From Methanosarcina barkeri str. Wiesmoor (lineage in GTDB: Archaea; Halobacteriota; Methanosarcinia; Methanosarcinales; Methanosarcinaceae), in contig NZ_CP009526.1 of the NCBI RefSeq assembly GCF_000969985.1, forward strand, positions 4,278,001 to 4,342,000: a stretch of 64,000 nt of DNA. The letters run 5' to 3'. The position numbers and the translations under genes are program-made. Below are positions 39,888 through 61,440 of this stretch, piece by piece; position 1 is the stretch's first letter, and each line of letters opens with the position of its first letter. Under the pieces are notes generated by a model that saw only the letters and a list, made by a program, of their open reading frames with translations, was not told where the DNA came from and searched no databases.

Positions 39888-40560
39888 TTGAGTTTATTCC
39901 AGAACTTGATTTAACTTGGCTATTGTCGCAAACATTATAATTCGGGTTCCCAAGTTTTAGGCGCAGATGTCTAACTCCACAAGTCTGATAGATCAAATGA
40001 TTGTGGTTTAGAAATTTTAGCCTTCGTTTCATGTGCGAAGTTGAAATACAAAATTCGATATCATAAGAAGTTTATGCGTCTAAAAAGTGGAACATAAGTT
40101 ACAGCTCCGAGGTATGATACTGCTTTGAATTCATATCTTGGAAATATTCTTTTATATAATTTTACTTAGCTAAAATATCTATTGTATACTTTTTATTGGT
40201 TTTCTTCTCTTTTCTCTCACTTTTCACTGTTTTGAGTAGATAACTTTATTCTTTTCCTAAAATATTTATAAATAATATCAAATAATATAAATTGTTAATT
40301 AATTTATTATTTATATACTTAGTAGATAAATTTGAATAGTATTATATAGTAGGTTGTCAAATAGATATATTCATACTCTGGAGATGCCATCTAAAAATAA
40401 AGCTTGAAAACTCTAGGTAATACTTTTCTCTTCATTTAAAAACTGGTAGTGCCTTTGAGTAACTGATTATGGATGTGTTTTTTAATTCTTGCAAATAGGT
40501 AAGTATACTATTGTTGATCAGGTTTGATAATTAAATGAAATTAAATCAAGGTGAACGTCT
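39888..40560. other. border between core genes and glycan region
   Basis: No gene is visible in these 670 bases. From 40211 onward the DNA is nearly identical to that from 52198, so the left edge of the large duplication lies here. AT-rich TATA-like sequences at about 40260-40320 (TTTATATACTTAG) and the ribosome-binding site GGTGA before the GTG at 40561 should drive the first cassette. Confidence 0.6.
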
Positions 40561-44187: not shown

Positions 44188-44832
44188 ATGTTTATTTTTG
44201 ACCTCCATCTTCACTCAAAATATTCATCGGATGGTATCTTGGACCCTAAAACAATCACAAAAGTCGCAATAAGAAGGGGGCTCAACGGAATTGCTATAAC
44301 TGACCATAACACAATAAAAGGAGGATTAAAAGCAAAAGAGTACGAAACCAAAAATTTCAAAGTGATCATTGGTTCTGAAATTATGACTAATAATGGAGAA
44401 GTTATTGGTTTATTTCTTTCAGAAGAAATTAGATCTACAGATCTAATAGAAGTAATCTCAACAATCAAAGCTCAAAATGGCATAGTAGTTATCCCTCACC
44501 CCTTCGACAAAATGAGGCACTCTGCCCTGTACCCTACTGATGAAGAAGCTCATTTAATCGACTGTATAGAAGGCTTTAATTCCAGATGTATTTTCCAAAA
44601 GTACAATGATAAAGCTGTTGAATATGCTAATAAACATAACTTACCACTTGTCGCTGGAAGCGATGCCCATTTTGCAAATGAAATCGGAAATGCGGGAATC
44701 GTTACCCAGAGTGAAGATTTGCAAGACGCGATAATTAAAAATAACATTGAGATATTCGGAAGCCGATCAATGCTTATTAACCATGCTTTTACCAAGGGAC
44801 TGAAAAGATGGCGAAAAATAAGATATGGATGA
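44188..44832 (+). CDS. PHP-domain phosphoesterase, copy 1
   Basis: This 214-residue PHP-type metal-dependent phosphoesterase has all four motifs: DLHLHSKYSSDG at the N-terminus, ITDHNTIKG near residue 40, VIPHPFDKMR near 103 and GSDAHFANE near 157. It probably removes a phosphate from a small substrate or lipid-linked sugar phosphate. It begins four bases after the glycosyltransferase and overlaps the next gene by 25 bases. The C-terminal 95 residues are identical, apart from one residue, to the copy at 55161-55808, while the N-terminal half is only similar. The recombination boundary therefore falls inside this gene at about 44553. Confidence 0.88.
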   Translation: MFIFDLHLHSKYSSDGILDPKTITKVAIRRGLNGIAITDHNTIKGGLKAKEYETKNFKVIIGSEIMTNNGEVIGLFLSEEIRSTDLIEVISTIKAQNGIVVIPHPFDKMRHSALYPTDEEAHLIDCIEGFNSRCIFQKYNDKAVEYANKHNLPLVAGSDAHFANEIGNAGIVTQSEDLQDAIIKNNIEIFGSRSMLINHAFTKGLKRWRKIRYG

Positions 44833-45764
44833 TAGTTCTTTTTACAATTATAGTTTACATTATAATGGGAGTATATGCTGATTTTGGAAAATTGTCCCTT
44901 ACTATATCCGAATTCCGATGGCAGTACTTTCTCCTTTTGATAGGCCTAACTACAGTAGGTTATTTTATTAGGTATATCAAATGGGATCTTTTTCTGAGAG
45001 CTACAGGTTTACACCTTGATTATAAAGAAAATCTCTTCATATTTTTCAGTGGACTTTCAATGATTGTAACTCCAGGCAAGTTAGGTGAAATCTGGAAAAG
45101 CTGGCTTATTAAAGATATTTCTGGGGAAGAATTAAGCAAAACTCTTCCTGTTGTAATTATGGATCGAGTGACCGACATAGTAAGTCTGGTACTTCTTTCT
45201 TTTCTGGGTATTTTTTACTACAGAAAAGGAATTTCTTTTCTAATCGTTCTTTCTATTTGCTGCATAGGATTTTACATTGCCATAAGATCACAGTCAATTT
45301 CTGGTAAAATGAAAAAAGTTCTTGAGAAAAAATTTAGTAAGTATACAACTGATATGCAATTGATGCACGAAACTATGAATAAAATAACAGAGCCCAAAAT
45401 CTTTGCTTCGCTATCCCTGTTGAATATTCTTGCGTGGTTTTTCGAGTGCATGGGACTTTATTATGTAGTCATCGGTTTTGGGCATTACATAAAGATTTCA
45501 CTCTCAACGTTTATATTCAGTTTTTCCTCCCTAGCAGGAGGAATGAGCATGGTTCCTGGGGGTATAGGAGTGGCAGAGGCAGGTATATCAGGGCTTTTAA
45601 TTTTAAACGGTATTTCTCCAGCACTGTCTGTTGGAATAGCCCTGATTCTCCGACTTGGATCCTTCTGGTATGGAGCACTTTTAGGATTTACAGTTCATAT
45701 GATATTTAAAAAGAAATTTATGAGAACTAAGGAAAATTTAGGTGACGGAGTTAAAAATGTCTAA
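44808..45764 (+). CDS. flippase-like membrane protein (LPG_synthase_TM/YbhN-AglD type), copy 1
   Basis: This 318-residue protein has about eight membrane helices and the family signatures IVTPGKLGEIWKSWLIKD near residue 85 and SLAGGMSMVPGGIGVAEAG near 240. Relatives of this type include the lysylphosphatidylglycerol synthase membrane domain and archaeal AglD-like proteins, and a role in lipid-linked sugar translocation or transfer has been proposed. It overlaps the PHP gene upstream and the DUF362 gene downstream, so translation is coupled. It differs from the copy at 55784-56740 by about eight residues. Confidence 0.85.
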   Translation: MAKNKIWMIVLFTIIVYIIMGVYADFGKLSLTISEFRWQYFLLLIGLTTVGYFIRYIKWDLFLRATGLHLDYKENLFIFFSGLSMIVTPGKLGEIWKSWLIKDISGEELSKTLPVVIMDRVTDIVSLVLLSFLGIFYYRKGISFLIVLSICCIGFYIAIRSQSISGKMKKVLEKKFSKYTTDMQLMHETMNKITEPKIFASLSLLNILAWFFECMGLYYVVIGFGHYIKISLSTFIFSFSSLAGGMSMVPGGIGVAEAGISGLLILNGISPALSVGIALILRLGSFWYGALLGFTVHMIFKKKFMRTKENLGDGVKNV

Positions 45765-46884
45765 AGTTGCAGTGCTAAAAACACATCCGAGTACCATTAC
45801 AGATGATTACTCTAAATTGATGAGACTTGCAGAATATGAAAAAATAGTTCCAAAACAAAATAAGACAGTACTAAAAATAAACCTTTCCTGGTCTCTTTAT
45901 TACCCAGCTTGTTCGACACCTCCCTGGCAACTTGAAGGAGTATTAAAAACGCTTCGAAATGACGGATACAAGAATGTAGTGGGAGTGGAGAATCAGACCG
46001 TTGTAACCCATCCATGGAAAGGATCTTACTTGAATAAATGGCTTCCAGTACTCAAAAAGTATGATACAGAATTTAAACCACTAACAAATGTGAAATGGAC
46101 ACCCTATAATCCGAAGTCTGAAATGCTTGCAATGTACGATATATTTGACGAAATAATCGTTCCTGAGGCATTTATAGAAAGCAATGTGATTCACCTCCCA
46201 ACAGTGAAAACTCATGGACATACAACGACCACTGGTTCGATGAAAAATGCATTTGGAGGCCTGATCCCTAAAAGAAGACACCATGCCCATATAAAAATAC
46301 ATGAAGTTTTGGTTGATCTTCTATCCATCCAGAAAGAGATCCATAAAGGAATTTTTGCAGTTATGGATGGGACTGTATGTGGAAATGGGGCTGGCCCAAG
46401 AACAATGATTCCATACATAGGAAATCTAATTCTGGCAAGTGATGATCAGGTTGCTATCGATGCAGTCGCTGCAAAGATGATGGGTTTTGACCCTTTAAAT
46501 ATAAATTATATTCACATGGCTCATGAAAGAGGATTGGGGATGGGTGATACTGACCAGATAGAAATTGTAGGGCTGGAAAAAAGCGAGTATAATAAGATCA
46601 ATTTTGGCTTTGAAGTCCAAAAAAGCCCGGTCGTCAAATGGGATCAGAGGATTCGAAAGGGTACATCAAATATAAAGTGGCTGCATTCCTTGTTATTTCA
46701 CTCCCCAATTTTCAGGACATTTATCTTTGCATCCGAAACTTACCATGATAAACTGTGGTATCCTACTACAGGGAAAAAGAATATTGAAACATTTATGAAA
46801 ACCGAATGGGGAAAACTATTTGAAAGCTACGAATACGGAGATTATCCCAAATATACTGAAGTAAAAGAGTGGAACCCTTACTGA
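45757..46884 (+). CDS. DUF362 family protein, copy 1
   Basis: This 375-residue protein shows DUF362 features: VLKINLSW near residue 38, HLPTVKTHGHTTTTGSMKNA near 147, and DGTVCGNGAGPR followed by ASDDQVAIDAVAAKMMGFDP. It lacks the ferredoxin-type C-x2-C-x2-C clusters attached to many DUF362 proteins. Biochemical function is unknown. I chose ATG 45757, which overlaps the flippase stop by eight bases, over an ATG five codons earlier, because copy 2 has only the later start. It differs from copy 2 by about four residues. Confidence 0.85.
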   Translation: MSKVAVLKTHPSTITDDYSKLMRLAEYEKIVPKQNKTVLKINLSWSLYYPACSTPPWQLEGVLKTLRNDGYKNVVGVENQTVVTHPWKGSYLNKWLPVLKKYDTEFKPLTNVKWTPYNPKSEMLAMYDIFDEIIVPEAFIESNVIHLPTVKTHGHTTTTGSMKNAFGGLIPKRRHHAHIKIHEVLVDLLSIQKEIHKGIFAVMDGTVCGNGAGPRTMIPYIGNLILASDDQVAIDAVAAKMMGFDPLNINYIHMAHERGLGMGDTDQIEIVGLEKSEYNKINFGFEVQKSPVVKWDQRIRKGTSNIKWLHSLLFHSPIFRTFIFASETYHDKLWYPTTGKKNIETFMKTEWGKLFESYEYGDYPKYTEVKEWNPY

Positions 46885-46923
46885 TAATATTTTGTAACGA
46901 ATATAAAATGTTATGGTGAACTC

Positions 46924-49097
46924 ATGACCAATTACACAAACAAAAAATCTGTTTTTAGAAATTTTGATCGATTAGATTTTTATTTGATTACATTATGTAT
47001 TTTATTTACTCTTTTAATCTTTTTATTATTCACCAACTCATCAATGCCTCCTTTTGAAGACGCTGCGATGTTAATGCGATATTCACAAAATTTTGTATAT
47101 GGACATGGAATAGTATGGAATATAGGCGAACATCCTGTAGATGGAGCGACTGATTTCTTATTTATGATTTGCGTAGCTATAACAGCAAAAACAGGACTTT
47201 CAATTGAAAATTCAGTACTTTTAATTGATATGAGTTCTCATATATTAACAGGAATCATAATATATATATTCATTCGAAAATTTTTATTTGCAGGTAGATG
47301 GATGGCTTTTACTTCTTTATTATTTTTTATATTAGGGACTGGACTTATATACACAGCTGTATTTTTTGGAACTCCTTTTTTTGCATTGTTTTCGGCAATT
47401 ACATGGTTTTGTGCAAATGAAGCAGTTATAGATCCAAAATATTCCAATTCACTTATATTTTCGGTTTCTGGTTTAATATTAGGTTTGATTAGACCAGAAG
47501 GGGTATTTCTAGCTATTTTTATGTTAATTGCTATTCTATTTAAAATTGGATTTAAAAAATCAAAAAAAATTGTATTATCATTTTTGATAATTTTTGGGAT
47601 TATTGGCAGCATTTACTTTATATGGAGATGGGGATACTTTGGTTATCCACTTCCTAATCCTTATTATAAAAAAGGTGGTTTTACTCTTCACCTCAGGGGA
47701 TTAACTCAATCAATAGGTACGTTTGTTATATTTTCTTATCCTTTTATTCCTGCATTTATTTTAGGTGGGAGATCCAAAGAAAATCTACAGCAAACAATAT
47801 TCTCTTTGATACCAGTAATTGGATTTATACTATAGTTCCTTACTTAACAAATTACACTTTTTATTTGCTGATGGAAAGTTTCCATCCATCTCTTTGCAAA
47901 TGACAATGAGTTTTCTATTCTAATAAACTCGTTTTTGATTATGTTTCTTAAATGTTCTTTAGATTGAACAAATGTTACAGATACTTTTCTTTTTATCGTT
48001 TTCCATACATATTCTACAGGATTTAGATCTGGTGAATATGGTGGTAGAAACACAAGTATAATCCCTAATTCTTTGGCTTTTGTTACTGTTTTTATTGAGT
48101 GATGTGTTTTTGAATTGTCAAGTATAAGCACAACTATTTTTCCTTTGTTTTTTTCCACTATTTTTTCCAGAAATTCACATACGTTTTCTGCCTTTGAACA
48201 ATTCTTGAATTCAATAAGATTATTTCCATTAAGTGAATAAAAGGCAAATGCATTTGCCTTTATATAATCAGTATTTTTTATCATCAAAGGTTTTTTAAAA
48301 GACCATAAACGTTGTGTATTAGCTTTTGTTTGTGGTGAAGATTCATCCAGAAAACCTATGACATATTGTTCATCTGAACCAATATGTTCTGGAATTGCTT
48401 CTGTTAACTTTTTTTAAAATGTCTTCTGCGTTCTGTGGTCTTCAGTAATCTAGAACATAAGGTTTAGAATGATACATGTTAAAACTATGTAGTATTACTC
48501 CGATTTGCTTTTGTGAATATTCTACATCATATTTTTCCTTTATTAATTCCAAAACTTCTCTGGTACCAATAATCCTTCTCATTCAGTAAATTCCTTAATT
48601 TTATCATTTGTTCATCGGTAAGTTTAGATCTTCTTCCCCCACAAAATTGTGGCATTAAGGCGGTGTAGCCGCCTTTGTCCCAATCTTCCTGCCAATAATA
48701 TCCTGTTTTCTTAGTAACTCCAAGTTTAATAGCAGCTTCTTCAACAGAATCTCCTAAATATCTGAATTTGACAAAATAAAGTTTTTTAAGCACTCTAGAG
48801 TTCTTTTCATGAGTAATCAAGGAGTTAAGTTCATCAACAGTTACCTTTCTATCAATGATAATTTGTTCCTTCCCCACCATAAAGGGATATAAGACCTAAT
48901 ATGTGTAATAGTTTACGTTAAGAACTATAATTTGGATTTTGATGTCGGATGAAATGAATTATTATGGAAGATTCCAATACGCTGTCTTTCCCATAATACT
49001 TATGTCTTGGCCATCTGTCATCAAAGGGATTGACGAAGAACTAAAACTCCAAAAATTAACATTCTCAACGTCGATGAAAAAATATTCATTTATTTAG
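46924..49097 (+). pseudogene. GT-C glycosyltransferase gene interrupted by IS630
   Basis: The N-terminal part (46924 to about 47832) encodes a membrane glycosyltransferase of the AftB/ZomB-like type, with FEDAAMLMRYSQNFVYGHG, WNIGEHPVDGATDFLFM and GYPLPNPYYKKG. At the TA dinucleotide 47831-47832 an IS630 element is inserted. Removing it with one TA rejoins the frame exactly, giving GFILIWILMSDEMNYYGRFQ and then YAVFPIILMSWPSV up to 49094, where IS110 begins. A 68-base fragment between the two IS110 elements (50612-50679) can be read as RIGMQQVVMLRFLSFNP and may be more of the same gene. The gene is inactive as a whole. Confidence 0.82.
47833..48927 (-). mobile_element. degenerate IS630-family element
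   Basis: This 1,095-bp element is bounded by imperfect inverted ends (TAGTTC..TTA at left and right) and flanked by a TA duplication, as IS630 members are. The transposase on the minus strand is broken. The N-terminal helix-turn-helix piece is at 48527-48880 (AAIKLGVTKKTGYYWQEDW). The catalytic piece is at 47844-48287 (VVLILDNSKTHHS, LPPYSPDLNPVEYVW). The 240 bases between carry frameshifts. The DDE Asp and the terminal Glu are still visible, but the element cannot make a full transposase. Confidence 0.9.
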
Positions 49098-49123
49098 CAT
49101 GAAAGTACATGAGGAAATCTTCC

Positions 49124-50368
49124 TCACGTGCTCTCTTCATTCTGTTTTTCCGTTATTGCAAATATTTCACTCATTATTTTTATTCGTTCATCAACGGAAA
49201 ATATCTCGGTCTCGACAATCTTCCTCTTTTGAGTTTCTCCCTTTTTATATCCAGTTTCATCTTCGTACATCTCATCGTTTACGATAAGATGCCATATTAT
49301 CGTTGCAATTTTCCTTGCCAAGGCAATTATTGCCTTGGAATGTCCAATTGACTTCTTTTTTCTGTTAAAAAACTCTTTTAACTTGCTATTTTTCGTTCTT
49401 GCTGCTGCCTGAGAAATCTGCGTCAGAATCCATCTTGCTGTTTTCGATCCTCTCTTTGTGATTCTTCCGTTGTGGTATTTATCTGCAGATTGATACACAT
49501 TAGGAACCAGACCAAGCCAGGAAGCAAGCTTATTTCCAGAAGAAAAATCCTTAAAGTTGCCTATCTCAGCAAGTAGAGTTGCAGCACCAAGTTCTCCTAT
49601 GCCAGGAACTGACATTAAAATCTCCATTTCTCTTTTATGCTTTTGATAAGCATAATTGAAAATTTCTTTTTCTAAAGCTTCGATCTCATCATCAAGACTC
49701 TTTATGAGTTTCAGACAGATCTGAAGTCTGAATGCAGCACTTTGAGAGATTTCTCGATCAAGAATTTCTCTTATCTGAGCAGCTTTTTTCCGAACATTTG
49801 GAGAGAGGCTTGCTATAATCTGGTCAACACTCTTACCTGAAGAGATTCCTGATAAGATCATTCTGCCATTCTTGCCAAAAATGTCTGTCAGTGCATTCTT
49901 CAGGTTTAACATTTCAGATGCAAGAATTGAGTGAGCTTTATTTTTTATATCTGTTCTTTTTTGTACAAGTGTTAACCGAAGTCGAACATATGACCTAAAA
50001 TCTCTCTGATCCTTTGGGAAAACTCTTGATGGCTGAATCATATTATTAAGTGCAAGTTGCGCAATGACTTCTGAGTCGATCTTATCTGTTTTTTTATGAG
50101 TAAATACCTTCATATCTCGTGCATTTCCAACTATTACAGGTAGATAATTTATCAATGAATCATGAATCGGAACCCAGAAATCACTTGTTGATTCACATGC
50201 AACAACATTACATTTTTCTGAGATTACCCATTTTTTAAGGGCTAAAATTCCCTCATCATCTCTGTTAAAACGTTGCTGTTGTTTTTCACCAGATAGACTG
50301 AGAATTGTAGCAATGAAAAAGAGTTTGTGAATATCTAGACCACAAGCTTTGTTTATGACTTCAATCAA
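49124..50368 (-). CDS. IS110-family recombinase, copy 1
   Basis: This 414-residue DEDD/serine recombinase has an N-terminal RuvC-like domain (ACGLDIHKLFFIATILSL; second acidic site DKIDSEVIAQLAL). Its C-terminal Tnp20 domain has SVPGIGELGAATLLAEIG, KLASWLGLVPNVYQSADKYH and GRITKRGSKTARWILTQ, including the conserved Ser. Full length, without stops, so it may be active. It is similar but not identical to the copy at 50711-51955, so the two arrived separately or diverged after an old duplication. Confidence 0.93.
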   Translation of the reverse strand: MIEVINKACGLDIHKLFFIATILSLSGEKQQQRFNRDDEGILALKKWVISEKCNVVACESTSDFWVPIHDSLINYLPVIVGNARDMKVFTHKKTDKIDSEVIAQLALNNMIQPSRVFPKDQRDFRSYVRLRLTLVQKRTDIKNKAHSILASEMLNLKNALTDIFGKNGRMILSGISSGKSVDQIIASLSPNVRKKAAQIREILDREISQSAAFRLQICLKLIKSLDDEIEALEKEIFNYAYQKHKREMEILMSVPGIGELGAATLLAEIGNFKDFSSGNKLASWLGLVPNVYQSADKYHNGRITKRGSKTARWILTQISQAAARTKNSKLKEFFNRKKKSIGHSKAIIALARKIATIIWHLIVNDEMYEDETGYKKGETQKRKIVETEIFSVDERIKIMSEIFAITEKQNEEST

Positions 50369-50611
50369 ATTAGATCACCCAATTTGGTTTGGGCAGTGGA
50401 ATTGCCTAAAAGGCCAATTTAGCATCCATGATCAAAGTCACATTTGAGCCTTCGATGGCAATTCACTGATTAGTTTTAGTACGGTTTTGATAAACCAAAA
50501 ACAAGACAACCTTACTGCCCAAGGTAATGAGGAGATCAATAGTCAAAAAATGTGGGGTAAACTACTTTCATTTATTTGTGCCTGTTATTCGAAGAATTTC
50601 ATGTGCGTTTT
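50369..50611 (-). ncRNA. candidate IS110 bridge RNA region, copy 1
   Basis: This is the long non-coding end upstream of the recombinase. IS110-group elements are known to express a bridge RNA from this end, with loops pairing to donor and target DNA. Minus-strand hairpins are visible, for example GGTTTATCAAAACC and TTGGCCTTTTAGGCAA. The equivalent region is kept in copy 2 and, in part, in the MITEs. The transcript is predicted from position and structure only. Confidence 0.5.
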
Positions 50612-50710
50612 AGTGGATCTTGCTCACGAATTGGAATGCAGCAAGTGGTGATGCTCAGATTCTTAAGTTTCAATCCTTGTTTAGCATGAAAGTACATGAG
50701 GAAATCTTCC

Positions 50711-51955
50711 TCACGTGCTCTCTTCATTCTGTTTTTCCGTTATTGCAAATATTTCACTCATTATTTTTATTCGTTCATCAACGGAAAATATCTCGGTCTC
50801 AACAATCTTCCTCTTTTTAACTTCTCCTTTTTCGTACCCGGTCTCATCTTCATACATCTCATCATTTATGATAAGATGCCATATTATCGTTGCAATTTTC
50901 TTTGCCAAGGCAATAATTGCCTTGGCATATCCAATTGACTTCTTTTTCCTGTTAAAAAACTCTTTTAACCTGCTATTTTTCTTTCTTGCTGCTGCTTGAG
51001 CAATCTGGGTTAGAATCCATCTTGCTACTTTTGATCCTCTTTTAGTGATTCTACCGTTGTGGTATTTATCTGCAGATTGATACACATTCGGAACTATTCC
51101 AAGCCATGAAGCAAGTTTATCTCCCGATGGAAAATCACTAAAATTTCCTATTTCAGCAATAAGAGTTGCTGCACCAAGTTCTCCAATACCTGGAACTGAC
51201 ATTAAAATTTCCATTTCTCTTTTATGCTTTTGATAAGCATAATTGAAAATTTCTCTTTCCAGAGTTTCAATTTCATCATCCAGATGTTTTATGAGATTTA
51301 GACAGATCTGAAGTCTGATTGCAGCACTCTGAGAGATTTCTCTGTCCAGAATCTCTCTTATCTGAGCAGTTTTTTTCCGAACATTTGGAGAAAGGCTTTC
51401 TATAATCTGATCAACATTTTTACCTGAAGCAATTCCTGACAGAATTGCTCTACCATTTTTTCCAAAAATGTCTGTCAGTACGTCACCTAGACGTAGCATT
51501 TCAGAAGATAGAATTGCATGAGCTTCATTTTTTATATCTGTTCTTTTCCTTACAAGAGTTAACCTGAGCCGAACATATGACCTGAATTCTCTGTGCCTCT
51601 TTGGGAAAACTCTTGATGGCTGAATCATATTATTCAATGCAAGTTGTGCAATGAATTCTGAATCTATCTTATCTGTTTTTTTGTGTGTAAATGCTTTCAT
51701 ATCTCGAGCATTTCCAACTATAACAGGCAGATGATCTATCAATGATTCATAGATTGGAACCCAGAAGTCACTTGTTGATTCACAAGCAACAACATCACAT
51801 TTTTCTGATGTTACCCAATTTTTAAGGGATAAAATTCCCTCATCATCTCTCTCAAAACGCTGTAGCTGTTTTTCCCCAGATCTGCTGAGAATAGTAGCAA
51901 TGACAAAAATTTTGTGAATGTCTATACCACAAGCTTTGTTTATTTCCCCTTCCAA
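50711..51955 (-). CDS. IS110-family recombinase, copy 2
   Basis: This 414-residue recombinase has the same RuvC-like (ACGIDIHKIFVIATILSR) and Tnp20 (MSVPGIGELGAATLIAEIG) domains as copy 1. Substitutions are scattered through the whole length, most densely in the N-terminal 150 residues. No frameshift or stop is present. The divergence shows the neighbouring elements did not arise from one another recently. Confidence 0.93.
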   Translation of the reverse strand: MEGEINKACGIDIHKIFVIATILSRSGEKQLQRFERDDEGILSLKNWVTSEKCDVVACESTSDFWVPIYESLIDHLPVIVGNARDMKAFTHKKTDKIDSEFIAQLALNNMIQPSRVFPKRHREFRSYVRLRLTLVRKRTDIKNEAHAILSSEMLRLGDVLTDIFGKNGRAILSGIASGKNVDQIIESLSPNVRKKTAQIREILDREISQSAAIRLQICLNLIKHLDDEIETLEREIFNYAYQKHKREMEILMSVPGIGELGAATLIAEIGNFSDFPSGDKLASWLGIVPNVYQSADKYHNGRITKRGSKVARWILTQIAQAAARKKNSRLKEFFNRKKKSIGYAKAIIALAKKIATIIWHLIINDEMYEDETGYEKGEVKKRKIVETEIFSVDERIKIMSEIFAITEKQNEEST

Positions 51956-52200
51956 TTTATATTACCCCATCATTTCCATGGACAGTGGAATTGCCTCAAA
52001 GGCAATTTGGCATCCGTGATCAAGGTCACATTTGAGCCTTCGATGGCAATTCAACGATTAGTTTTTTCACGGCTTCGAAGAACCAAAGAGAAGACAACCT
52101 TACTGTCCTAAGAGAATGATGGAGCACATAAACAAAAAAGGTAAGTTAAAAGGACTTTCATTGATTTGAGCGTGTTATTCAAAGAATATCATGTGCGTTT
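51956..52200 (-). ncRNA. candidate IS110 bridge RNA region, copy 2
   Basis: This is the non-coding end upstream of the second recombinase, alignable with 50369-50611. The hairpin seen there is also present here with changed bases (GGTTCTTCGAAGCC on the minus strand), which supports a conserved RNA structure. Differences in loop sequences would predict different target specificity. Confidence 0.48.
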
Positions 52201-52548
52201 TCTCTCACTTTTCACTGTTTTGAGTAGATAACTTTATTCTTTTCCTAAAATATTTATAAATAATATCAAATAATATAAATTGTTAATTAATTTATTATTT
52301 ATATACTTAGTAGATAAATTTGAATAGTATTATATAGTAGGTTGTCAAATAGATATATTCATACTCTGGATATGCCATCTAAAAATAAAGCTTGAAAACT
52401 CTAGGTAATACTTTTCTCTTCATTTAAAAACTGGTAGTGCCTTTGAGTAACTGATTATGGATGTGTTTTTTAATTCTTGCAAATAGGTAAGTATACTATT
52501 GTTGATCAGGTTTGATAATTAAATGAAATTAAATCAAGGTGAACGTCT

Positions 52549-53505
52549 GTGAAAATCGTGGACTATAATCTAAAAAGCGTCTACTTTATTTCGAGAAGAG
52601 TCCTTAAGGTTTTTAAGGGTTCACAGTTTATATATATTACAAAAGTAAAAATTATCAAAGAAATTATTATATCAATGCGTCCAAAACAATGGTACAAAAA
52701 TTTTGTATTATTTGCAGGCATTATCTTTTCATTAAACTTATTCCACGTTTATATGTGGATTACTGTATTTTTCTCATTCATTATATTTTGTACAGTATCT
52801 GGGTCTGAGTACATCATTAATGACATAATGGACAAAGAAAAAGACAAAAATCATCCCAAAAAGCGTAATCGTCCCATTGCTTCAGGAAAATTAGATACAT
52901 CAAATGCACTCATTTTTGTAGCTATTATGCTCTGCACAGCATTTACTGGAGCATATCTAATAAACGTTCAATTTTTAGGAGTCACTTTGGCTTATTTTCT
53001 TTTAATCGTTTTATACTCTTTATTTCTAAAGCATATTGTTCTTATCGATGTTATTACTATTTCATTGGGTTTTGTACTAAGGGCAATTGCAGGCTGTTTA
53101 GCAATAAAAGTTTCCGTCTCCCCCTGGCTGATTGTATGCACCTTTTTAGCCGCACTTGTCCTAGCAATTGGGAAAAGAAAGAATGAACTGATGTTGCTGG
53201 AAAATGGAGCAACCAAACACCGTAAAGTCCTGAGTGATTATTCACCAGAAATACTAGACAAAATGATGACTGTGGTTACCAGTACATTGATTATGTCTTA
53301 TTCTCTTTATACATTTTTTACAAGTAATACTTGGATGATGATAACAATACCCTTAATAATTTATGGATTGTTCAGATATATCTTCCTCGTTAATTCTAAA
53401 AATATGGGAGGAGAGCCAGAAATGTTGTTTAAAGATAAAGGAATGCTATCGTGCATGGTTTTGTGGGGATCCTCAATAATTGTAATGCTTGGATCGAGGT
53501 TATGA
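52549..53505 (+). CDS. UbiA-type polyprenyl-phosphate transferase (DPPR synthase-like), copy 2
   Basis: This 318-residue protein has the same Asp-rich motifs (NDIMDKEKDKNHPKKRNRPI) as copy 1. Only one residue differs in the first 200, after which differences accumulate up to a distinct C-terminus (SCMVLWGSSIIVMLGSRL). It starts with GTG at 52549. The downstream glycosyltransferase begins one base after the stop codon, so the operon is tightly packed. Confidence 0.85.
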   Translation: MKIVDYNLKSVYFISRRVLKVFKGSQFIYITKVKIIKEIIISMRPKQWYKNFVLFAGIIFSLNLFHVYMWITVFFSFIIFCTVSGSEYIINDIMDKEKDKNHPKKRNRPIASGKLDTSNALIFVAIMLCTAFTGAYLINVQFLGVTLAYFLLIVLYSLFLKHIVLIDVITISLGFVLRAIAGCLAIKVSVSPWLIVCTFLAALVLAIGKRKNELMLLENGATKHRKVLSDYSPEILDKMMTVVTSTLIMSYSLYTFFTSNTWMMITIPLIIYGLFRYIFLVNSKNMGGEPEMLFKDKGMLSCMVLWGSSIIVMLGSRL

Positions 53506-53506
53506 A

Positions 53507-55177
53507 ATGTCAATACTACAAAAATATACTAATGAAATACTGATCAAAAAAGAATATATAATCGTTTCTATTATTTCATTATTTATATTTATAATCGGAA
53601 TCCAAATAACTCCTGGTCTTACAGTAGATTCATTGAGGTATATTTCTGTTGCAGAAAAAATCGTCACAGAGGGAGCACTTTATCCTATAGAAGTACATAG
53701 TAGTTCATATGCCTCTTATGCAACAACAATAAGTCCTCCACTGTTTGAATATTTAATTTCGGCGTTTTTACTCCTTGGCTTTGAAAAGCTCACCGCTGGT
53801 GGCATGGTTTCTTTGCTTTTTTTGGCACTTCTTCCATTTCCAATTTATTACTTAGCAAAAGAAGTGAATAATCGGAAAATTGGCTACTTATCAATTCTAT
53901 TTATGATTTCGATGGTTTCAACGTGGTATGTTGGTACATATGTATGGACTGAGATGACTTTTACTTTTCTTTCTTTATCTTCACTTTATTACTGTATAAA
54001 ATATATAAATATCAATCGGACTAGAAATCTCCTCTTATGTTCTATCTTTTGTATGCTATCGTGCCTGACAAGATGGTTTGGAATCATTTTAGGTATCTCA
54101 ATATTTTTAGTATTTTTATACAGACATTATACAGAGAATCGCCCTTCTAGAGTTGTGTTATTACTTTATTCAATAATTTCTTTTTCCCCTGTTAGTATTT
54201 TGCTTTTGAGAAACATTCTATTTAAAAGATCTGTCTACCCAACTTCAGGACTAAGAGTGAAATTCTTAGATATTTTCATTGTTCCTATCGGATCGATTTT
54301 AATGGATTTTTTCTATCCATTTTATATGTATTTCTACAAATTAATTCTTCTTATTTATCATAACAAAATTTCTATCAGCTCAATAAATCTCAATTTTAAC
54401 TTTATATATAGTTTAGCAATATTGGTATCAATAATTTTATTCATTTTGCTGATTAGACTCATAATTAAGTTCATAGATAACTATCGATCCATAAAAGATA
54501 AAATATTGTTGTGTAAAAGAAAAATTGTTATTTTACCGGTGATACTATATCTGGTTTTATACCTTCTTGGATTAATGTTTTTGAAATGTATCTCTTCTTT
54601 TGATCCTCTTGGCACAAGATTTCTTTTCCCAGTGTACCCTTTAATAATCATAATATTTTTTTACTTGTATAATACAATGATTTCATGTTTATACGGAATT
54701 GACAAGTTACAAGTAAAAAAATGCTTTTTTGCATTCGTAATATTATTTTTATTATTTCAGAGTATTAGAACTTCGTACTTATTGATATATCAAAAAGATG
54801 GGAAAGGATACAGTTCCCCAGAAGTTAAAAGTTTTACAACATCCAACTCGTTTATTTTTTTGAAGAGTAATTGAAATAAATTAGATCCAATCTACACTAA
54901 TGTTGATACCTATGCTCTGTATACGAATGTTGACATTAATATGATGAAATACTATCTTGACTCAAATTTAAACGATAATATTATAAAAATTAATGAAAAC
55001 GCAATACAAAAATCGTTAGATAATAGAACTATTTTCTATATTCAAACAAATAAACAAAAAGATGAAGAACAAATATTGGAAAATCTGATGACTAGTAATA
55101 TGTTTACCAGATGCATAAAAGATGAGAGCTATGAAGTGTGGATAAAAAAAGGCAGAGAACATGACTTTAAGATTTGA
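53507..55177 (+). pseudogene. GT39/ArnT-like glycosyltransferase with an in-frame TGA
   Basis: The gene starts MSILQKYTNEILIKK at 53507 and encodes a polytopic protein with the external loop TVDSLRYISVAEKIVTEGAL, resembling GT39/ArnT-type transferases. The frame hits TGA at 54872-54874 after FIFLKSN. It then continues without shift as NKLDPIYTNVDTYALYTN and on to 55177, where it overlaps the PHP start. The whole would be 556 residues. TGG to TGA at a Trp codon is the simplest explanation. The truncated 455-residue product still contains the membrane domain and might function. Confidence 0.75.
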
Positions 55178-55808
55178 TCTACATATTCACTCGAAGTATT
55201 CTTCAGATGGTGTTCTAGACCCAAAGAAAATTGTAAAAACCGCGATTAAAAGAAACTTGAAGGGAATTGCTATTACCGACCATAATACGATAAAAGGAGG
55301 ATTAAAAGCAATAGAGTATGAAACTAAAGATTTTAAGGTAATAGTAGGTTCAGAAATTATGACTGATCAAGGAGAAGTTATTGGACTTTTCCTTTCAGAA
55401 GAAATAAAATCAAATAATTTGATAAATGTGGTATCTGAAATCAAAGCTCAAAATGGAATTGTAATCGTTCCGCATCCTTTCGATGAAATGAGACGTTCAG
55501 CACTTCACCCAAAAGAAGAATGTGCTTCTCTAATCGACTGTATAGAAGGCTTTAATTCCAGATGTATTTTCCAAAAGTACAATGATAAAGCTGTTGAATA
55601 TGCTAATAAACATAACTTACCACTTGTCGCTGGAAGCGATGCCCATTTTGCAAATGAAATTGGAAATGCGGGAATCGTTACCCAGAGTGAAGATTTGCAA
55701 GACGCGATAATTAAAAATAACATTGAGATATTCGGAAGCCGATCAATGTTTATTAACCATGCTTTTACCAAGGGACTGAAAAGATGGCGAAAAATAAGAT
55801 ATGGATGA
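55161..55808 (+). CDS. PHP-domain phosphoesterase, copy 2
   Basis: This 215-residue phosphoesterase has an intact set of metal-binding motifs: DLHIHSKYSSDG, ITDHNTIKG, VPHPFDEMRR and GSDAHFANE. The first half differs from copy 1 at many positions, but from about residue 124 it is almost identical. It overlaps the preceding glycosyltransferase frame by 17 bases and the flippase gene by 25. Confidence 0.88.
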   Translation: MTLRFDLHIHSKYSSDGVLDPKKIVKTAIKRNLKGIAITDHNTIKGGLKAIEYETKDFKVIVGSEIMTDQGEVIGLFLSEEIKSNNLINVVSEIKAQNGIVIVPHPFDEMRRSALHPKEECASLIDCIEGFNSRCIFQKYNDKAVEYANKHNLPLVAGSDAHFANEIGNAGIVTQSEDLQDAIIKNNIEIFGSRSMFINHAFTKGLKRWRKIRYG

Positions 55809-56740
55809 TAGTTCTTTTTACAATTATAGTTTACATTATAATGGGAGTATATGCTGACGTTGGAAAATTGTCCCTTACTATATCCGAATTCCGATGGCAG
55901 TACTTTCTCCTTTTGATAGGCCTAACTACAGTAGGTTATTTTATTAGGTATATCAAATGGGATCTTTTTCTGAGAGCTACAGGTTTACACCTTGATTATA
56001 AAGAAAATCTCTTCATATTTTTCAGTGGACTTTCAATGATTGTAACTCCAGGCAAGCTAGGTGAAATCTGGAAAAGCTGGCTTATTAAAGATATTTCTGG
56101 GGAAGAATTAAGCAAAACTCTTCCTATTGTAATTATGGATCGAGTGACCGATATAGTAAGTCTGGTACTTCTTTCTTTTCTGGGTATTTTTTACTACAGA
56201 AAAGGAATTTCTTTTCTAATCGTTCTTTCTATTTGCTGCATAGGATTTTACATTGCCATAAGATCACAGTCAATTTCTGGTAAAATGAAAAAAGTTCTTG
56301 AGAAAAAATTTAGTAAGTATACAACTGATATGCAATTGATGCATGAAACCATGAATAAAATAACAGAGCCGAAAATCTTTGTGTCGCTTTCCCTGTTGAA
56401 TGTTCTTGCGTGGTTTTTCGAGTGTATGGGGCTTTATTATGTGGTCATCGGTTTTGGGCATTACATAAAGATTTCACTCTCAACGTTTATATTCAGTTTT
56501 TCCTCCCTAGCAGGAGGAATAAGCATGGTCCCTGGGGGTATAGGAGTGGCAGAGGCAGGTATATCAGGGCTTTTAATTTTAAACGGTATTTCTCCAGCAT
56601 TGTCTGTTGGAATAGCCCTGATTCTCCGACTTGGATCCTTCTGGTATGGAGCACTTTTAGGATTTACAGTTCATGTGATATTTAAAAAGAAATTTATGAG
56701 AGCTAAGGAAAATTTAGGTAACGGGGTTAAAAATGTCTAA
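55784..56740 (+). CDS. flippase-like membrane protein, copy 2
   Basis: This 318-residue protein is nearly identical to 44808-45764, with about eight scattered conservative changes. It has eight or so membrane helices and the GKLGEIWKSW and VPGGIGVAEAG motifs. It overlaps both neighbours, so stoichiometry with PHP and DUF362 is probably translationally controlled. Confidence 0.85.
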   Translation: MAKNKIWMIVLFTIIVYIIMGVYADVGKLSLTISEFRWQYFLLLIGLTTVGYFIRYIKWDLFLRATGLHLDYKENLFIFFSGLSMIVTPGKLGEIWKSWLIKDISGEELSKTLPIVIMDRVTDIVSLVLLSFLGIFYYRKGISFLIVLSICCIGFYIAIRSQSISGKMKKVLEKKFSKYTTDMQLMHETMNKITEPKIFVSLSLLNVLAWFFECMGLYYVVIGFGHYIKISLSTFIFSFSSLAGGISMVPGGIGVAEAGISGLLILNGISPALSVGIALILRLGSFWYGALLGFTVHVIFKKKFMRAKENLGNGVKNV

Positions 56741-57860
56741 AGTTGCAGTGCTAAAAACACATCCAAGTACCATTACAGATGATTACTCTAAATTGATGAG
56801 ACTTGTAGAATATGAAAAAATAGTTCCAAAACAAAATAAGACAGTACTAAAAATAAACCTTTCCTGGTCTCTTTATTACCCAGCTTGTTCGACACCTCCC
56901 TGGCAACTTGAAGGAGTATTAAAAACGCTTCGAAATGACGGATACAAGAATGTAGTGGGAGTGGAGAATCAGACCGTTGTAACCCATCCATGGAAAGGAT
57001 CTTACTTGAATAAATGGCTTCCAGTACTCAAAAAGTATGATACAGAATTTAAACCACTAACAAATGTGAAATGGACACCCTATAATCCGAAGTCTGAAAT
57101 GCTTGCAATGTACGATATATTTGACGAAATAATCGTTCCTGAGGCATTTATAGAAAGCAATGTGATTCACCTCCCAACAGTGAAAACTCATGGACATACA
57201 ACGACCACTGGTTCGATGAAAAATGCATTTGGAGGCCTGATCCCTAAAAGAAGACACCATGCCCATATAAAAATACATGAAGTTTTGGTTGATCTTCTAT
57301 CCATCCAGAAAGAGATCCATAAAGGAATTTTTGCAGTTATGGATGGGACTGTATGTGGAAATGGGGCTGGCCCAAGAACAATGATTCCATACATAGGAAA
57401 TCTAATTCTGGCAAGTGACGATCAGGTTGCTATCGATGCAGTCGCTGCAAAGATGATGGGTTTTGACCCTTTAAATATAAATTATATTCACATGGCTCAT
57501 GAAAGAGGATTGGGAATGGGTGATACTGACCAGATAGAAATTGTAGGGCTGGAAAAAAGCGAGTATAATAAGATCAATTTTGGCTTTGAAGTCCAAAAAA
57601 GTCCGGTCGTCAAATGGGATCAGAGGATTCGAAAGGGCACATCAAGTATAAAGTGGCTTCATTCCTTATTATTTCACTCCCCAATTTTCAGGACATTTAT
57701 CTTTGCATCCGAAACTTACCATGATAAACTGTGGTATCCTACTGCGGGGAAAAAGAATATTGAAACATTTATGAAAACCGAATGGGGAAAACTATTTGAA
57801 AGCTACGAATACGGAAATTATCCTAAATATACTGAAGTAAAAGAGTGGAACCCTTACTAA
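56733..57860 (+). CDS. DUF362 family protein, copy 2
   Basis: This 375-residue protein differs from copy 1 at about four positions. It shares VLKINLSW, THGHTTTTGSMKNAFGGL and DGTVCGNGAGPR. No Fe-S cysteine clusters are present. It is the last gene of cassette copy 2; downstream lie IS605-like hairpins instead of the AftB-like gene that follows copy 1. Confidence 0.85.
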   Translation: MSKVAVLKTHPSTITDDYSKLMRLVEYEKIVPKQNKTVLKINLSWSLYYPACSTPPWQLEGVLKTLRNDGYKNVVGVENQTVVTHPWKGSYLNKWLPVLKKYDTEFKPLTNVKWTPYNPKSEMLAMYDIFDEIIVPEAFIESNVIHLPTVKTHGHTTTTGSMKNAFGGLIPKRRHHAHIKIHEVLVDLLSIQKEIHKGIFAVMDGTVCGNGAGPRTMIPYIGNLILASDDQVAIDAVAAKMMGFDPLNINYIHMAHERGLGMGDTDQIEIVGLEKSEYNKINFGFEVQKSPVVKWDQRIRKGTSSIKWLHSLLFHSPIFRTFIFASETYHDKLWYPTAGKKNIETFMKTEWGKLFESYEYGNYPKYTEVKEWNPY

Positions 57861-57871
57861 TAAATCAAATT

Positions 57872-58689: not shown

Positions 58690-60066
58690 ATGAATTTAAA
58701 AAATAATTTAGCAAAAGTTACACAAGCTTACTGCAGCATTGTCGATAATTTTTTCCAATGGATACTCATAAGAATTTTGATTAAAAAAAGTACTTATCTA
58801 AAAATTTTAAAATCGGTATATATAAATGAAAAAACAATCTTAGCATGTTTATTTTTAATTGCTCTCACTATTCGAATCTCAGTATATGCAATTTTATCCC
58901 CTGCATATTATCCATTAGATCCATCTGACCTTTCAAGCGATTCAAGAGCTTATGATCTGAATGCTATAAATGGGATCACAAATGGTGAATTTTCAACATA
59001 TTGGCAGCCAGGAATCAGTTTTATCTTAGGTATTATATATCTTATTTTTGGACATAATATAATAATTGCATCCTTATTATTAATTCTGATTGGTTCATAT
59101 GTGGGAATTATCTCATATTTAATTTCTAAGTACATATTCTCTCAGAAAAAAGCTGGATATTTATCTTTTTTTTTAATAGCTATTTATCCCTATCTTATCT
59201 TAGAATCTCCAAAAATAATGTCTGATACCTTTGCTCTGTTTATTTTTACATCATCTTTATACTATATTATAAAAGATTTCAATGAGAAAAGGCTAAAATA
59301 TTCTTTAATTATTGGCTTTCTTACAGGAGTATTATTGTTAACAAGGCCAAATTATTTTTGGGTTCCTCCATTGTATTTAATACTCACAGCCAATTCATTT
59401 AAAGGTGAAGGATATTTATTTTTGCTAAAAAAATACATATTTTTTTCAATCACGCTTTTATTGGTAATAACGCCTTGGATTATATATACAGATACGAAAC
59501 TAGGAGAACCAACGCTTACAACTAATGGAGGAGTGAATTTTTATATAGGCAATAATCATAATTCAACAGGAAGGTATTGTGACCCATATGGCCTTAAAGA
59601 GAATAATAGTGAAATATTAAGAAGTAGAGAGGGTTTTAAGAAAGGATTAGACTATATTTTTACTTATCCAGCAGATTATTTCGCGTTGTGTTTAAAAAAA
59701 ATTGATTTATTACTATATATTCCCCAAAGATTACCATCTGAGTTGACAACTCATTCAGACTCAAATATTACAGAAATGTTGTTCAGTTCTATTATTAATC
59801 TGGGATTCATTGCTATCCAACTCGTTGGTATAAGAGGACTAATATATTCAAAAGGGCAAATTAAAAATAAACAAATATCTAATTTTATAATAGGTAGTCT
59901 TTTTTTCTTGTACACAACACCTATCGTTTTTTTTGTTTATGTACGAGCTACCATTCCTATCATATTTATATGGATACTTATTTCAAGCCCATACTTAGTT
60001 TATATAATCAAAGTTGCGCTGGCGCACCCAGCTGCAAGCAATGGTGTATGTTCGCACCACCACTAA
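58690..60066 (+). CDS. GT39-like membrane glycosyltransferase, 3' end altered
   Basis: This 458-residue polytopic protein has about ten membrane helices. The first external loop contains LDPSDLSSDSRAYDLNAI and STYWQPGISFILGIIYLIFG, the layout of GT39/PMT-type transferases with an acidic catalytic pair. ITPWIIYTD and TNGGVNFYIGNNHNSTGRYC follow near residue 265. The last 16 residues (VALAHPAASNGVCSHHH) are encoded by a hairpin of the IS605-like type at 60016-60062, so the natural C-terminus has been replaced. It probably acts on surface glycans with the adjacent cassette. Confidence 0.72.
   Translation: MNLKNNLAKVTQAYCSIVDNFFQWILIRILIKKSTYLKILKSVYINEKTILACLFLIALTIRISVYAILSPAYYPLDPSDLSSDSRAYDLNAINGITNGEFSTYWQPGISFILGIIYLIFGHNIIIASLLLILIGSYVGIISYLISKYIFSQKKAGYLSFFLIAIYPYLILESPKIMSDTFALFIFTSSLYYIIKDFNEKRLKYSLIIGFLTGVLLLTRPNYFWVPPLYLILTANSFKGEGYLFLLKKYIFFSITLLLVITPWIIYTDTKLGEPTLTTNGGVNFYIGNNHNSTGRYCDPYGLKENNSEILRSREGFKKGLDYIFTYPADYFALCLKKIDLLLYIPQRLPSELTTHSDSNITEMLFSSIINLGFIAIQLVGIRGLIYSKGQIKNKQISNFIIGSLFFLYTTPIVFFVYVRATIPIIFIWILISSPYLVYIIKVALAHPAASNGVCSHHH
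60016..60062 (+). mobile_element. third IS605-like hairpin at the end of the glycosyltransferase gene
   Basis: The stretch CACCCAGCTGCAAGCAATGG followed by TGTATGTTCGCACC aligns with the hairpin at 57881-57915 (CACCCCAACCTAAAGGATGG followed by GGTATGCTTCGGGCC) with scattered changes. It lies inside the last codons of the upstream reading frame. The following 60067-60253 holds no gene. Confidence 0.35.
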
Positions 60067-60253
60067 ATTCCGTTAAAGGAAATAATACCCCTAAACAATT
60101 TAGTTTGAGCAGAAGTTAATAACCGAAAATGGAATTGAGAAATCACATTATCATCAACGGTTACCGGGGAAGTTTCCCATCCCCGCAGCAAGCTAGCTAG
60201 GTATTCGACTGAAATAATGATGGGAAACCAAATTTTACATAAAAAAGATTTTA

Positions 60254-60485
60254 TTTAGCATGAAAGTACGAAATAAAACTGGCTCCCAACGCTCCTTTTA
60301 ATCTTCTGCTCCTTATCAAATTTAAGCCTTCTATGGCAATTCACTGATTAGTTTAGCAATGGTTTGAAAAACCATAGTTAGAACAACCTTACTACCCAGG
60401 ATAATGACGAGATCGATAGGCAAAGAAAGGTAAAGTAGAATACTTTCATTTCTTTGTGCCTGTTATTCGAAGAATATCATGTCCG
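60254..60485. mobile_element. IS110-derived MITE, unit 1
   Basis: This 232-bp element starts with the IS110 left end TTTAGCATGAAAGTAC and ends with about 160 bases related to the recombinase-upstream end of the IS110 elements at 49093 and 50680. The shared part runs from the CTATGGCAATTCACTGATTAG block to ATTCGAAGAATATCATG. A filler of about 55 bases replaces the recombinase gene. The hairpin ATGGTTT-GAA-AAACCAT is kept. Confidence 0.85.
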
Positions 60486-60717
60486 TTTAGCATGAAAGTA
60501 CGAAATAAAACTGGCTCCCAACGCTCCTTTTAATCTTCTGCTCCTTATCAAATTTAAGCCTTCTATGGCAATTCACTGATTAGTTTAGCAATGGTTTGAA
60601 AAACCATAGTTAGAACAACCTTACTACCCAGGATAATGACGAGATCGATAGGCAAAGAAAGGTAAAGTAGAATACTTTCATTTCTTTGTGCCTGTTATTC
60701 GAAGAATATCATGTCCG
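60486..60717. mobile_element. IS110-derived MITE, unit 2 (perfect tandem copy)
   Basis: This unit is identical to unit 1 over all 232 bases and joined head-to-tail to it, sharing the TTTAG core at the junction. Perfect identity shows the duplication is recent and fits insertion of a circular IS110-type intermediate next to an existing copy. Confidence 0.9.
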
Positions 60718-60819
60718 TTTAGTAGAAAATCCTACTTGAAAAAAGCCATGATGGACTTGAAGGCAGTGTGCCTAATCTTCTGTAAATTTTACTATATACC
60801 CCTTATTCTTCTTTTTTGA

Positions 60820-61440
60820 TTACTGCTCCATTACTATATACCTGTTTCCTGTAATCCAGTCTTCATTAATGTCTATCAGTATTGAGACTACCAGTCTCAA
60901 TACTGATTCTTGGTTCGGAAATGCTCCCACAACTCTACTTCTTCTTTTTATTTCCTTGTTAGTTCTCTCCATCATATTTGTTGTCCTTATTCCTCTCCAA
61001 TGACTCTGTGGAAACTGCATGTAGTTCATTACATCATACTGAAAATGTTCAAGAGTATCAGCTGCACTTTTATATCCCATATTATCCAGTTCTCTGATCA
61101 AATCCTGTAACTTCTGACGGTCTACCAATGCTTCTTTTATTTTCTCTGATACTTCTTTCTGTTTCTTTTTTGGAACCTTTTTTAGAACTTGTCTTATCAG
61201 ATGAACGTGACACATCTGCCAGCTTGATCCAATAAAGGATTCTCTAACTGCTTTTTGTATCCCTTTATGACCATCAGAAACAACTAACTTTACACCTCTT
61301 AACCCTCTTTCTTTAAGGTCTTCGAATAGACCTTCCCAGAATAGAGAGTCTTCACTGTCTGCCAATCTTACTCCAAGAATCTCACGTAAACCGTCATCTC
61401 GGATTCCAGCAACTACAAAAAGAGCTTTAGGGACCTTAAA
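60820..61440 (-). pseudogene. IS256-family transposase, C-terminal half
   Basis: The minus strand encodes the C-terminal half of a Mutator-type transposase: VAGIRDDGLREILGVRLADS (frame open to about 61437), KLVVSDGHKGIQKAVRESF with the second catalytic Asp, WQMCHVHLIRQVL, and RTTNMMERTNKEIKRRSRVV with the catalytic Glu. The N-terminal half and the left end are missing beyond 61440, where unrelated DNA begins. The element is inactive. Confidence 0.88.

What the first reader, a model, noticed from the sequence alone, without database searches (positions are those of the whole stretch)
60254..60717. Perfect tandem pair of 232-bp MITEs that keep the IS110 bridge-RNA end
Both units are identical and head-to-tail. 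They retain one 16-base end and about 160 bases of the recombinase-upstream end of the local IS110 elements, where bridge RNA is encoded in the IS110 group. The recombinase gene is gone. These could be non-autonomous elements carrying their own guide RNA and mobilised in trans by recombinases at 49124 and 50711. The tandem form fits insertion of a circular intermediate at its own core.
Basis: partly seen in the sequence, partly recalled or inferred. Interest (0 to 1): 0.7.

Follow-up and report, generated by a model that had tools for sequence, protein, structure and literature searches.

The report
Tandem passengers of an RNA-guided transposon
Two identical 232-base stretches side by side in a methane-making archaeon are cut-down copies of a nearby RNA-guided jumping gene that have lost both the enzyme and a working guide RNA, so they most likely travel on the enzyme and guide RNA of full-size relatives; even smaller 70-base passengers seem to do the same, which offers a natural test of how such guides act at a distance.

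Summary
In detail: two identical 232-bp units lie head to tail, the perfect repeat running 60254-60722. They share 16 bp of the right end and about 170 bp (82/76% identity) of the left end of the two local IS110 elements. They belong to an old family: 10 copies in this genome, present in 6 of 30 genomes of the genus, inserted precisely without target duplication. 'Own guide RNA' is not supported. Full elements have a readable bridge RNA: 33 fold well (mean z -3.4), target loops predict insertion sites (p=5e-5), donor loops covary with the right end (45/48). The MITE keeps the target-loop arm but not the donor loop or the fold (mean z 0.05 over 27), and its guides predict its flanks no better than IS guides. 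About 70-bp relatives without any guide region are abundant, so bridge RNA very probably acts in trans. Tandem junctions recur (15 places, control 0), including mixed 70/232-bp pairs that duplication cannot make. Side result: IS-A's target loop matches this genome's CRISPR repeat, where it sits.

The parts
60254..60485 (-). MITE unit 1 (core TTT 60254-60256, body 60257-60485); strand is the recombinase orientation of the parent
   Evidence: 232/232 identical to unit 2; CM hit 60266-60399, 55.2 bits
60486..60717 (-). MITE unit 2 (core TTT 60486-60488), followed by the outer core 60718-60720
   Evidence: CM hit 60498-60631
60470..60497 (-). Abutted junction: right end - AAA - left end (rc TTTCATGCT AAA CGGACATG...), the sequence a circular form would have
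   Evidence: zero-mismatch hit of the junction pattern at C2:4338470-4338497
60254..60269 (-). 16-bp right end shared with the IS110 elements (second copy 60486-60501)
60346..60390 (-). Kept target-loop arm of the bridge RNA in unit 1 (60578-60622 in unit 2)
   Evidence: alignment of loops, positions
49093..50611 (-). IS-A: full IS110 element, recombinase 49124-50368
   Evidence: PF01548 + PF02371, NF033542, ends
50680..52201 (-). IS-B: full IS110 element, recombinase 50711-51955; donor loop has C where its own right end has T
50389..50522 (-). IS-A bridge RNA (target loop 50468-50513, left donor guide from 50414)
   Evidence: CM 149 bits; fold z -3.09; positions
51978..52110 (-). IS-B bridge RNA
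   Evidence: CM 153.7 bits; fold z -3.44
50608..50682 (+). CRISPR repeat half - spacer - repeat half between IS-A and IS-B; IS-A sits inside the repeat
   Evidence: positions; same repeat in intact array C2:4403633-4404881
40204..40220 (-). Uninterrupted copy of IS-B's target in a duplicated segment (40210-41478 = 52198-53466, 96%)

Best explanation
The pair is two copies of a 232-bp non-autonomous derivative of an IS110-family element of Methanosarcina. It keeps the two ends that the recombinase acts on, plus a truncated, probably non-functional bridge-RNA gene (target-loop arm without donor loop). Shown by sequence: it is dispersed, it inserts precisely into AAA-containing sites without duplication, and full relatives encode a bridge RNA whose loops match their targets and their own right end. 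Inferred: recombinase and bridge RNA from full elements act on the MITE ends in trans, through a circular form whose junction is right end-AAA-left end. Inferred: the tandem arose when a circle (or a dimeric circle) was recombined at the AAA core of a copy already in place.
For: Ends and homology; 10 copies in the own genome, 35 matches in 5 genomes, 6 of 30 genomes. Clear empty sites for 5 of 25 MITE insertions searched (L150, L151, L155, L162, L165). Bridge RNA of full elements: 33 sequences mean z -3.41, 27 of 33 at or below -2; 23-sequence alignment 91.4% paired cells, 12 cells with changes on both sides against 4.7 in shuffles, 0/500; guides against flanks 6.86 of 9 versus 5.01 permuted, p=5e-5, 43 insertions in 18 groups; donor guide and right end agree in 45 of 48. 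MITE RNA: mean z 0.05, 1 of 27 at or below -2. Elements of about 70 bp with both ends and no guide region, 69 loci read, so for those guides must come in trans. One of them, L310 in G029, lies at a site whose right side (AATCTAGT) matches the target loop of that genome's full element L337. Junction pattern at 15 places in 6 of 30 genomes, reversed-pattern control 0; mixed 70/232-bp tandems L160 and L164.
Against: No RNA or circle was observed; everything is from sequence. Which helper moved the MITE is open: no extant guide explains its flanks well (best 4.76 of 9, against 6.86 for full elements with their own guides). The 232-bp copies other than the pair are only 70-91% identical to the query, so the family may be mostly inactive now. 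A structure-fitted alignment of 21 MITE hits (20 distinct) still pairs 77.8% of cells with some changes on both sides, though inserted columns and the fitting favour that.
Confidence: 0.75

Rival explanations
1. One reading: the MITE expresses a working guide RNA of its own and only needs the recombinase in trans.
For: It keeps the target-loop arm; 12 of 21 MITEs have CT before the AAA, as their left guide (..GCTAAA) predicts, against 0 of 41 full elements and 2 of 67 minis, Fisher p 9e-10; in L150, L151, L155 and L162 relatives without the insertion show the CT already there (not in every relative: L155 has AT in G003, one L150 copy has CC, one L151 relative has TT).
Against: No donor loop: an LDG-like GC[TCA]AAA after the target loop in 3 of 27 copies, all GCAAAA; fold at shuffle level; own guides score 4.76, equal to guide B (4.76) and near IS-A (4.71). 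IS-A's left guide (TACT-AAAA) explains the left flanks at least as well (2.43 against 2.00 of 4).
Confidence: 0.07
2. The tandem is a plain replication-slippage or unequal-crossover duplication between short TTTAG repeats.
For: Both units are identical, so the pair is recent; a 5-bp repeat flanks it.
Against: Same junction at 15 places in 6 of 30 genomes with control 0; unlike pairs (70-bp next to 232-bp element in L160 and L164; two different minis in L318) cannot come from duplicating one element.
Confidence: 0.2
3. Fossil only: ancient deleted IS110 copies spread by segmental duplication and homologous recombination rather than transposition.
For: IS copies here do recombine: IS-B is chimeric and its flanks belong to different sites; L152 shares only its right flank with L007.
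Against: Empty sites show exact insertion of the unit in unrelated contexts; many 70-bp copies are over 90% identical to the query in different flanks.
Confidence: 0.1

Closest known systems
IS110 group with bridge RNA in the left end (IS621; PMC11208160, PMC11208158)
   Same: DEDD recombinase, long non-coding end upstream of the gene, RNA with target and donor loops; in the published assay a 22-bp donor with bridge RNA in trans recombines (passages read).
   Different: Here the 5' side of the target loop is complementary to the top strand on the right and the 3' side to the bottom strand on the left; IS621 has the reverse order. Core AAA, not CT. Natural guide-less derivatives exist.
IS1111 group / seekRNA (PMC11187229)
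   Same: Order of guides: top-strand complement first (passages). A 7-bp subterminal inverted repeat CATGAAA in IS-A.
   Different: IS1111 usually carries the non-coding region downstream of the gene; here it is upstream.
Classical MITEs, e.g. archaeal SMN1 and SM3A (PMC3718332 passages)
   Same: Short, no gene, mobilised in trans.
   Different: Those belong to other families and, as described there, have terminal inverted repeats and flanking direct repeats; these have no target duplication and only short subterminal inverted repeats.
QMITE1/2 of Coxiella (PMC5896051, abstract read)
   Same: MITEs that give rise to small RNAs; QMITE2 is a target for IS1111.
   Different: Not described in the abstract as IS1111-derived or as carrying a guide.

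Membership tests
IS110 family (IS-A, IS-B) | DEDD_Tnp_IS110 and Transposase_20 domains | tested here: met
   NF033542 272-277 bits against cut-off 140
IS110 family (IS-A, IS-B) | Bridge RNA with target and donor loops that match target and donor | tested here: met
   computed, no RNA data
IS110 group (as opposed to IS1111) | Non-coding RNA region upstream of the recombinase gene | tested here: met
   CM hits lie in the left end; right end about 30 bp
IS110 group (as opposed to IS1111) | Bottom-strand match 5' of top-strand match | tested here: not met
   top-strand complement comes first in the groups that could be scored; order stated in PMC11187229. The order does not depend on which strand is transcribed
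IS1111 group | Non-coding RNA region downstream of the gene | tested here: not met
IS1111 group | Subterminal inverted repeats of 7-17 bp | tested here: inconclusive
   CATGAAA, 7 bp in IS-A; only 5 bp (CATGA) in IS-B and group C; length range from PMC11208160 section 12
MITE (232-bp unit) | No transposase gene, ends of an autonomous relative, dispersed copies | tested here: met
MITE (232-bp unit) | Target-site duplication | tested here: not met
   5 empty sites carry the A-run once; expected for IS110
Bridge RNA gene (232-bp unit) | Target loop present | tested here: met
Bridge RNA gene (232-bp unit) | Donor loop matching the element's own end, and stable fold | tested here: not met
Bridge RNA gene (232-bp unit) | Transcribed small RNA bound to recombinase | not testable with these tools
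   no expression data

The most novel reading that the evidence does not exclude
A natural half bridge RNA: the MITE supplies only a target-binding loop and borrows the donor-binding loop from a full element's RNA. This is mechanically thinkable because in the IS621 synaptic complex the two loops come from two different RNA molecules (PMC11208158 passage). The left guide of the window copy (TTGCTAAAC) shares eight bases with the right end-core-left end junction (TGCTAAAC), so such a half guide would favour insertion beside itself, i.e. tandems.
Probability: 0.07. Interest if true: 0.85.

Novelty: new variant of a known kind. Interest (0 to 1): 0.52.

Why it matters
Bridge RNAs were shown to work in trans on a 22-bp donor in engineered assays (PMC11208160 passages); these genomes hold what looks like the natural counterpart: swarms of about 70-bp elements that have shed both recombinase and guide. 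They suggest the minimal natural donor (about 52 bp left end plus 18 bp right end), give a natural record of trans guiding, and offer many AAA-core target sites with readable guides. The family also mixes features used to separate IS110 from IS1111 (guide RNA upstream, guide order reversed), and one member's guide is matched to the host's CRISPR repeat.

Tried and rejected
Rfam: no family fits the bridge-RNA region; three chance-level hits. First attempts to parse target loops by regular expression failed; left-end parsing was wrong and off by one base for CT-type copies (corrected); one search was a check only. I first thought the CT before AAA proved use of the MITE's own guide; one search showed its own guides score no better than guide B or IS-A's, so I dropped that. 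I first took the donor loop to have opposite polarity to the target loop; the consensus fold places the left donor guide on the 3' side, so both loops have the same polarity. The MITE's own block was sought in 30 genomes and seen only on MITE-type copies among the places listed. Printed work on IS110-derived MITEs or IS110 tandems: none seen in the listings, nor in 50, 63, 76. Most of those papers I saw only as listings; I read sections 6 and 12 and passages of PMC11208160, passages of PMC11208158, PMC11187229, PMC3718332, PMC9769881, PMC11578231 and PMC10359306, and the abstract of PMC5896051. Subscription papers and ISfinder were not available.

Rows dropped before counts: 8 of 29 MITE flank sets (L154, L157 orthologues; L160, L164 tandems; L152 rearranged; L008, L166, L167 unclear ends); L154 and L157 also. 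One mini (L269) was not parsed and one (L296, left flank of N) was skipped; tandem minis L281 and L250 carry a partner unit as one flank. In one search IS-A and IS-B were scored against reconstructed targets (CRISPR repeat; uninterrupted copy at 40204), because their present right flanks come from other sites and do not match; of the other full elements with both ends found, L061 and repeats of loci already used were left out. Guide offsets of 0-2 were allowed, equally for permuted guides. The 33 full elements folded are 41 non-redundant ones less 8 with truncated or MITE-type regions; 23 of the 33 went into the alignment.

Full report
What is there. The two units are identical over 232 bases and the period-232 identity covers 60254-60722. 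In recombinase orientation each unit is AAA-CGGACATG...CTTTCATGCT-AAA: the left end of IS110 relatives (about 170 bp, 82% to IS-A and 76% to IS-B), a block of about 46-60 bp of its own, and a 16-bp right end. There is no recombinase ORF. IS-A (49093-50611) and IS-B (50680-52201) are the only intact relatives of the recombinase found in the genome; the other 11 of 13 matches are fragments. Both carry the two Pfam domains of the family and exceed the NCBIfam cut-off for RNA-guided IS110 transposases.

The family. A query specific to the MITE's own block finds 10 copies here (the pair included), 35 matches in five genomes, and at least one match in 6 of 30 genomes of the genus. Related named records are mostly Methanosarcina. 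Of 25 flank pairs joined and searched, 5 gave a clear uninterrupted site in a relative or in another repeat copy (L150, L151, L155, L162, L165; a sixth, L166, was unclear). The insertion is exact and the A-run occurs once.

Even smaller relatives. A 72-base query of the two ends found matches in 28 of 30 genomes, many of them to left ends of larger elements. The 69 loci I read (20 each from G014, G023, G029 and 9 from G000) are mostly elements of about 70 bp: about 52 bp of left end joined to about 18 bp of right end. They have neither recombinase nor any part of the target or donor loops; the model of the bridge RNA gave no hit on the 7 minis tested (L270, L272, L281, L290, L309, L310, L329).

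The bridge RNA of full elements. In recombinase orientation the left end holds GGGCAG - GGTTGT[guide]GG-hairpin-CC[guide]CTAACC - GTGAATTGCC...donor arm...GGCAATTCCAC - CTGCCC. On 23 distinct sequences 91.4% of cells pair, and 12 cells change on both sides against 4.7 in shuffles (0 of 500 reach it), half of them in one outer-stem pair (GC to AU); the number of pairs with such a change, 5, is not unusual (73 of 500). IS-A and IS-B fold at z -3.09 and -3.44; 33 full elements average -3.41.

Guides read. The 5' side of the target loop is the reverse complement of the right target and the 3' side equals the left target: group A TGATAAAA/AAAATAAGT, B TAGAAAAA/AAATAAAAG, C-D TCAAAAAA/AAAGTAAAA, with insertion sites such as ATA-AAA-TAAG and GAA-AAA-TAAAAG. 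Each multi-copy group matches its own guides best, and over 43 insertions in 18 groups own guides score 6.86 of 9 against 5.01 (sd 0.32) after permuting guides between groups, p 5e-5. L051 is a poor fit (2 of 9). The donor-loop base T, C or A agrees with the right end in 45 of 48; the exceptions are L111 (nested in another copy), L060 (truncated) and IS-B. IS-B looks like a chimera: its left flank equals a site whose uninterrupted copy lies at 40204 and matches its right guide AAAGAGAAG, while its right flank is a CRISPR repeat.

The MITE's RNA. The target arm is kept but the donor arm is not recognisable: the covariance model scores 55 bits against 149-154, an LDG-like motif is present in 3 of 27 copies, and the fold averages z 0.05 with 1 of 27 at or below -2. 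Against this, an alignment of 21 hits fitted to the model still shows 77.8% paired cells and more paired changes than shuffles; it uses many inserted columns and is fitted to the structure, so I weigh it less. The MITEs' own guides score 4.76 on 21 flank sets, no better than guide B (4.76) or IS-A (4.71). One signal remains: CT before AAA in 12 of 21 MITEs, 0 of 41 full elements and 2 of 67 minis; it fits the MITE's left guide GCT-AAA and, with the A often seen before it, the left guide of IS-A (TACT-AAAA). The chimeric copy L168 has the guide of another element (TCAGA/TAAGG) and sits at TTCGA-AAA-TAAGT, which fits its own loop and equally that of a full-type left end in the same genome (L149).

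Trans action. Minis cannot encode a guide. L310 in G029 lies at GTACCA-AA-TCTAGTG; the element L337 of the same genome has guides TTCCAAAA/AAATCTAGT and sits at the same kind of site. Its recombinase is broken into pieces in that assembly. Minis of G023 match group-A guides best, the guide type of that genome's decayed element L088. For G029 as a set, guides of groups B and C score higher than L337's, so that case rests on single loci.

Tandems. The pattern right end-AAA-left end occurs at 15 places in 6 of 30 genomes; the reversed pattern at none. Some pairs are identical or nearly so (L309 57/57, L281 55/56), others diverged (L312 50/57). L160 and L164 join a mini to a 232-bp MITE, and L318 joins two kinds of mini. 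This argues for insertion at an occupied core, or insertion of a mixed dimer, over simple duplication.

A side result. The stretch between IS-A and IS-B is half of a CRISPR repeat, a spacer and half of the next repeat; the same repeat forms an intact array about 75 kb away. IS-A's loops (TACTAAAA/AAAAACAAG) match the repeat (CACT-AAAA-CAAGG) at 4 of 4 and 4 of 5 scored positions. A scan for this kind of junction found it in 1 of 30 genomes, the own one; three further two-mismatch hits are not it.

Comparison. The order top-strand complement first, bottom-strand second is that reported for IS1111, whereas IS110 members have the reverse (PMC11187229 passages; PMC11208160 section 6), yet the RNA lies upstream of the gene as in IS110. 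This order does not change if the RNA were read from the other strand. I did not place the recombinase on a tree; by sequence the nearest solved structures are IS621 and ISCro4, C-terminal part only.

Noticed in passing
window 50608-50682: CRISPR repeat half, 35-nt spacer and repeat half between IS-A and IS-B; IS-A's bridge-RNA target loop matches this repeat, and an intact array of the same repeat lies at C2:4403633-4404881.
   Followed up: partly
window 44197-46887 and 55173-57863: A 2.7-kb block of three ORFs is present twice at 95% identity; 40210-41478 is also repeated at 52198-53466 (96%), the second copy starting exactly at the IS-B left end.
   Followed up: partly
window 60007-60250: Just beside the MITE pair lies a repeat (ATCCCCGCAGCAAGCTAG..GGTATTCGACTGAAATAA) also found beside MITE L009 and at many places in related genomes; looks like the end of another mobile element.
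   Followed up: no
L153 (G029:C2:632880-633318): Three copies of the 15-mer ACTAAACGCACATAA/G precede a MITE left end, as if only the end had been repeated.
   Followed up: no
L391-L394 (own genome and G003): MITE L150 sits in another dispersed repeat (GGGGAAACTCTAAATGCATACCTATCATCTAAAATAAGC...) with over 20 matches in the own genome.
   Followed up: partly
window 19572-20396: Overlapping self-matches of 72-75% identity at regular shifts of about 126 bases indicate an array of diverged tandem repeats.
   Followed up: no
window 60820-61365: Mutator/IS256-like transposase fragment next to the MITE pair, named from its sequence by recall only.
   Followed up: no
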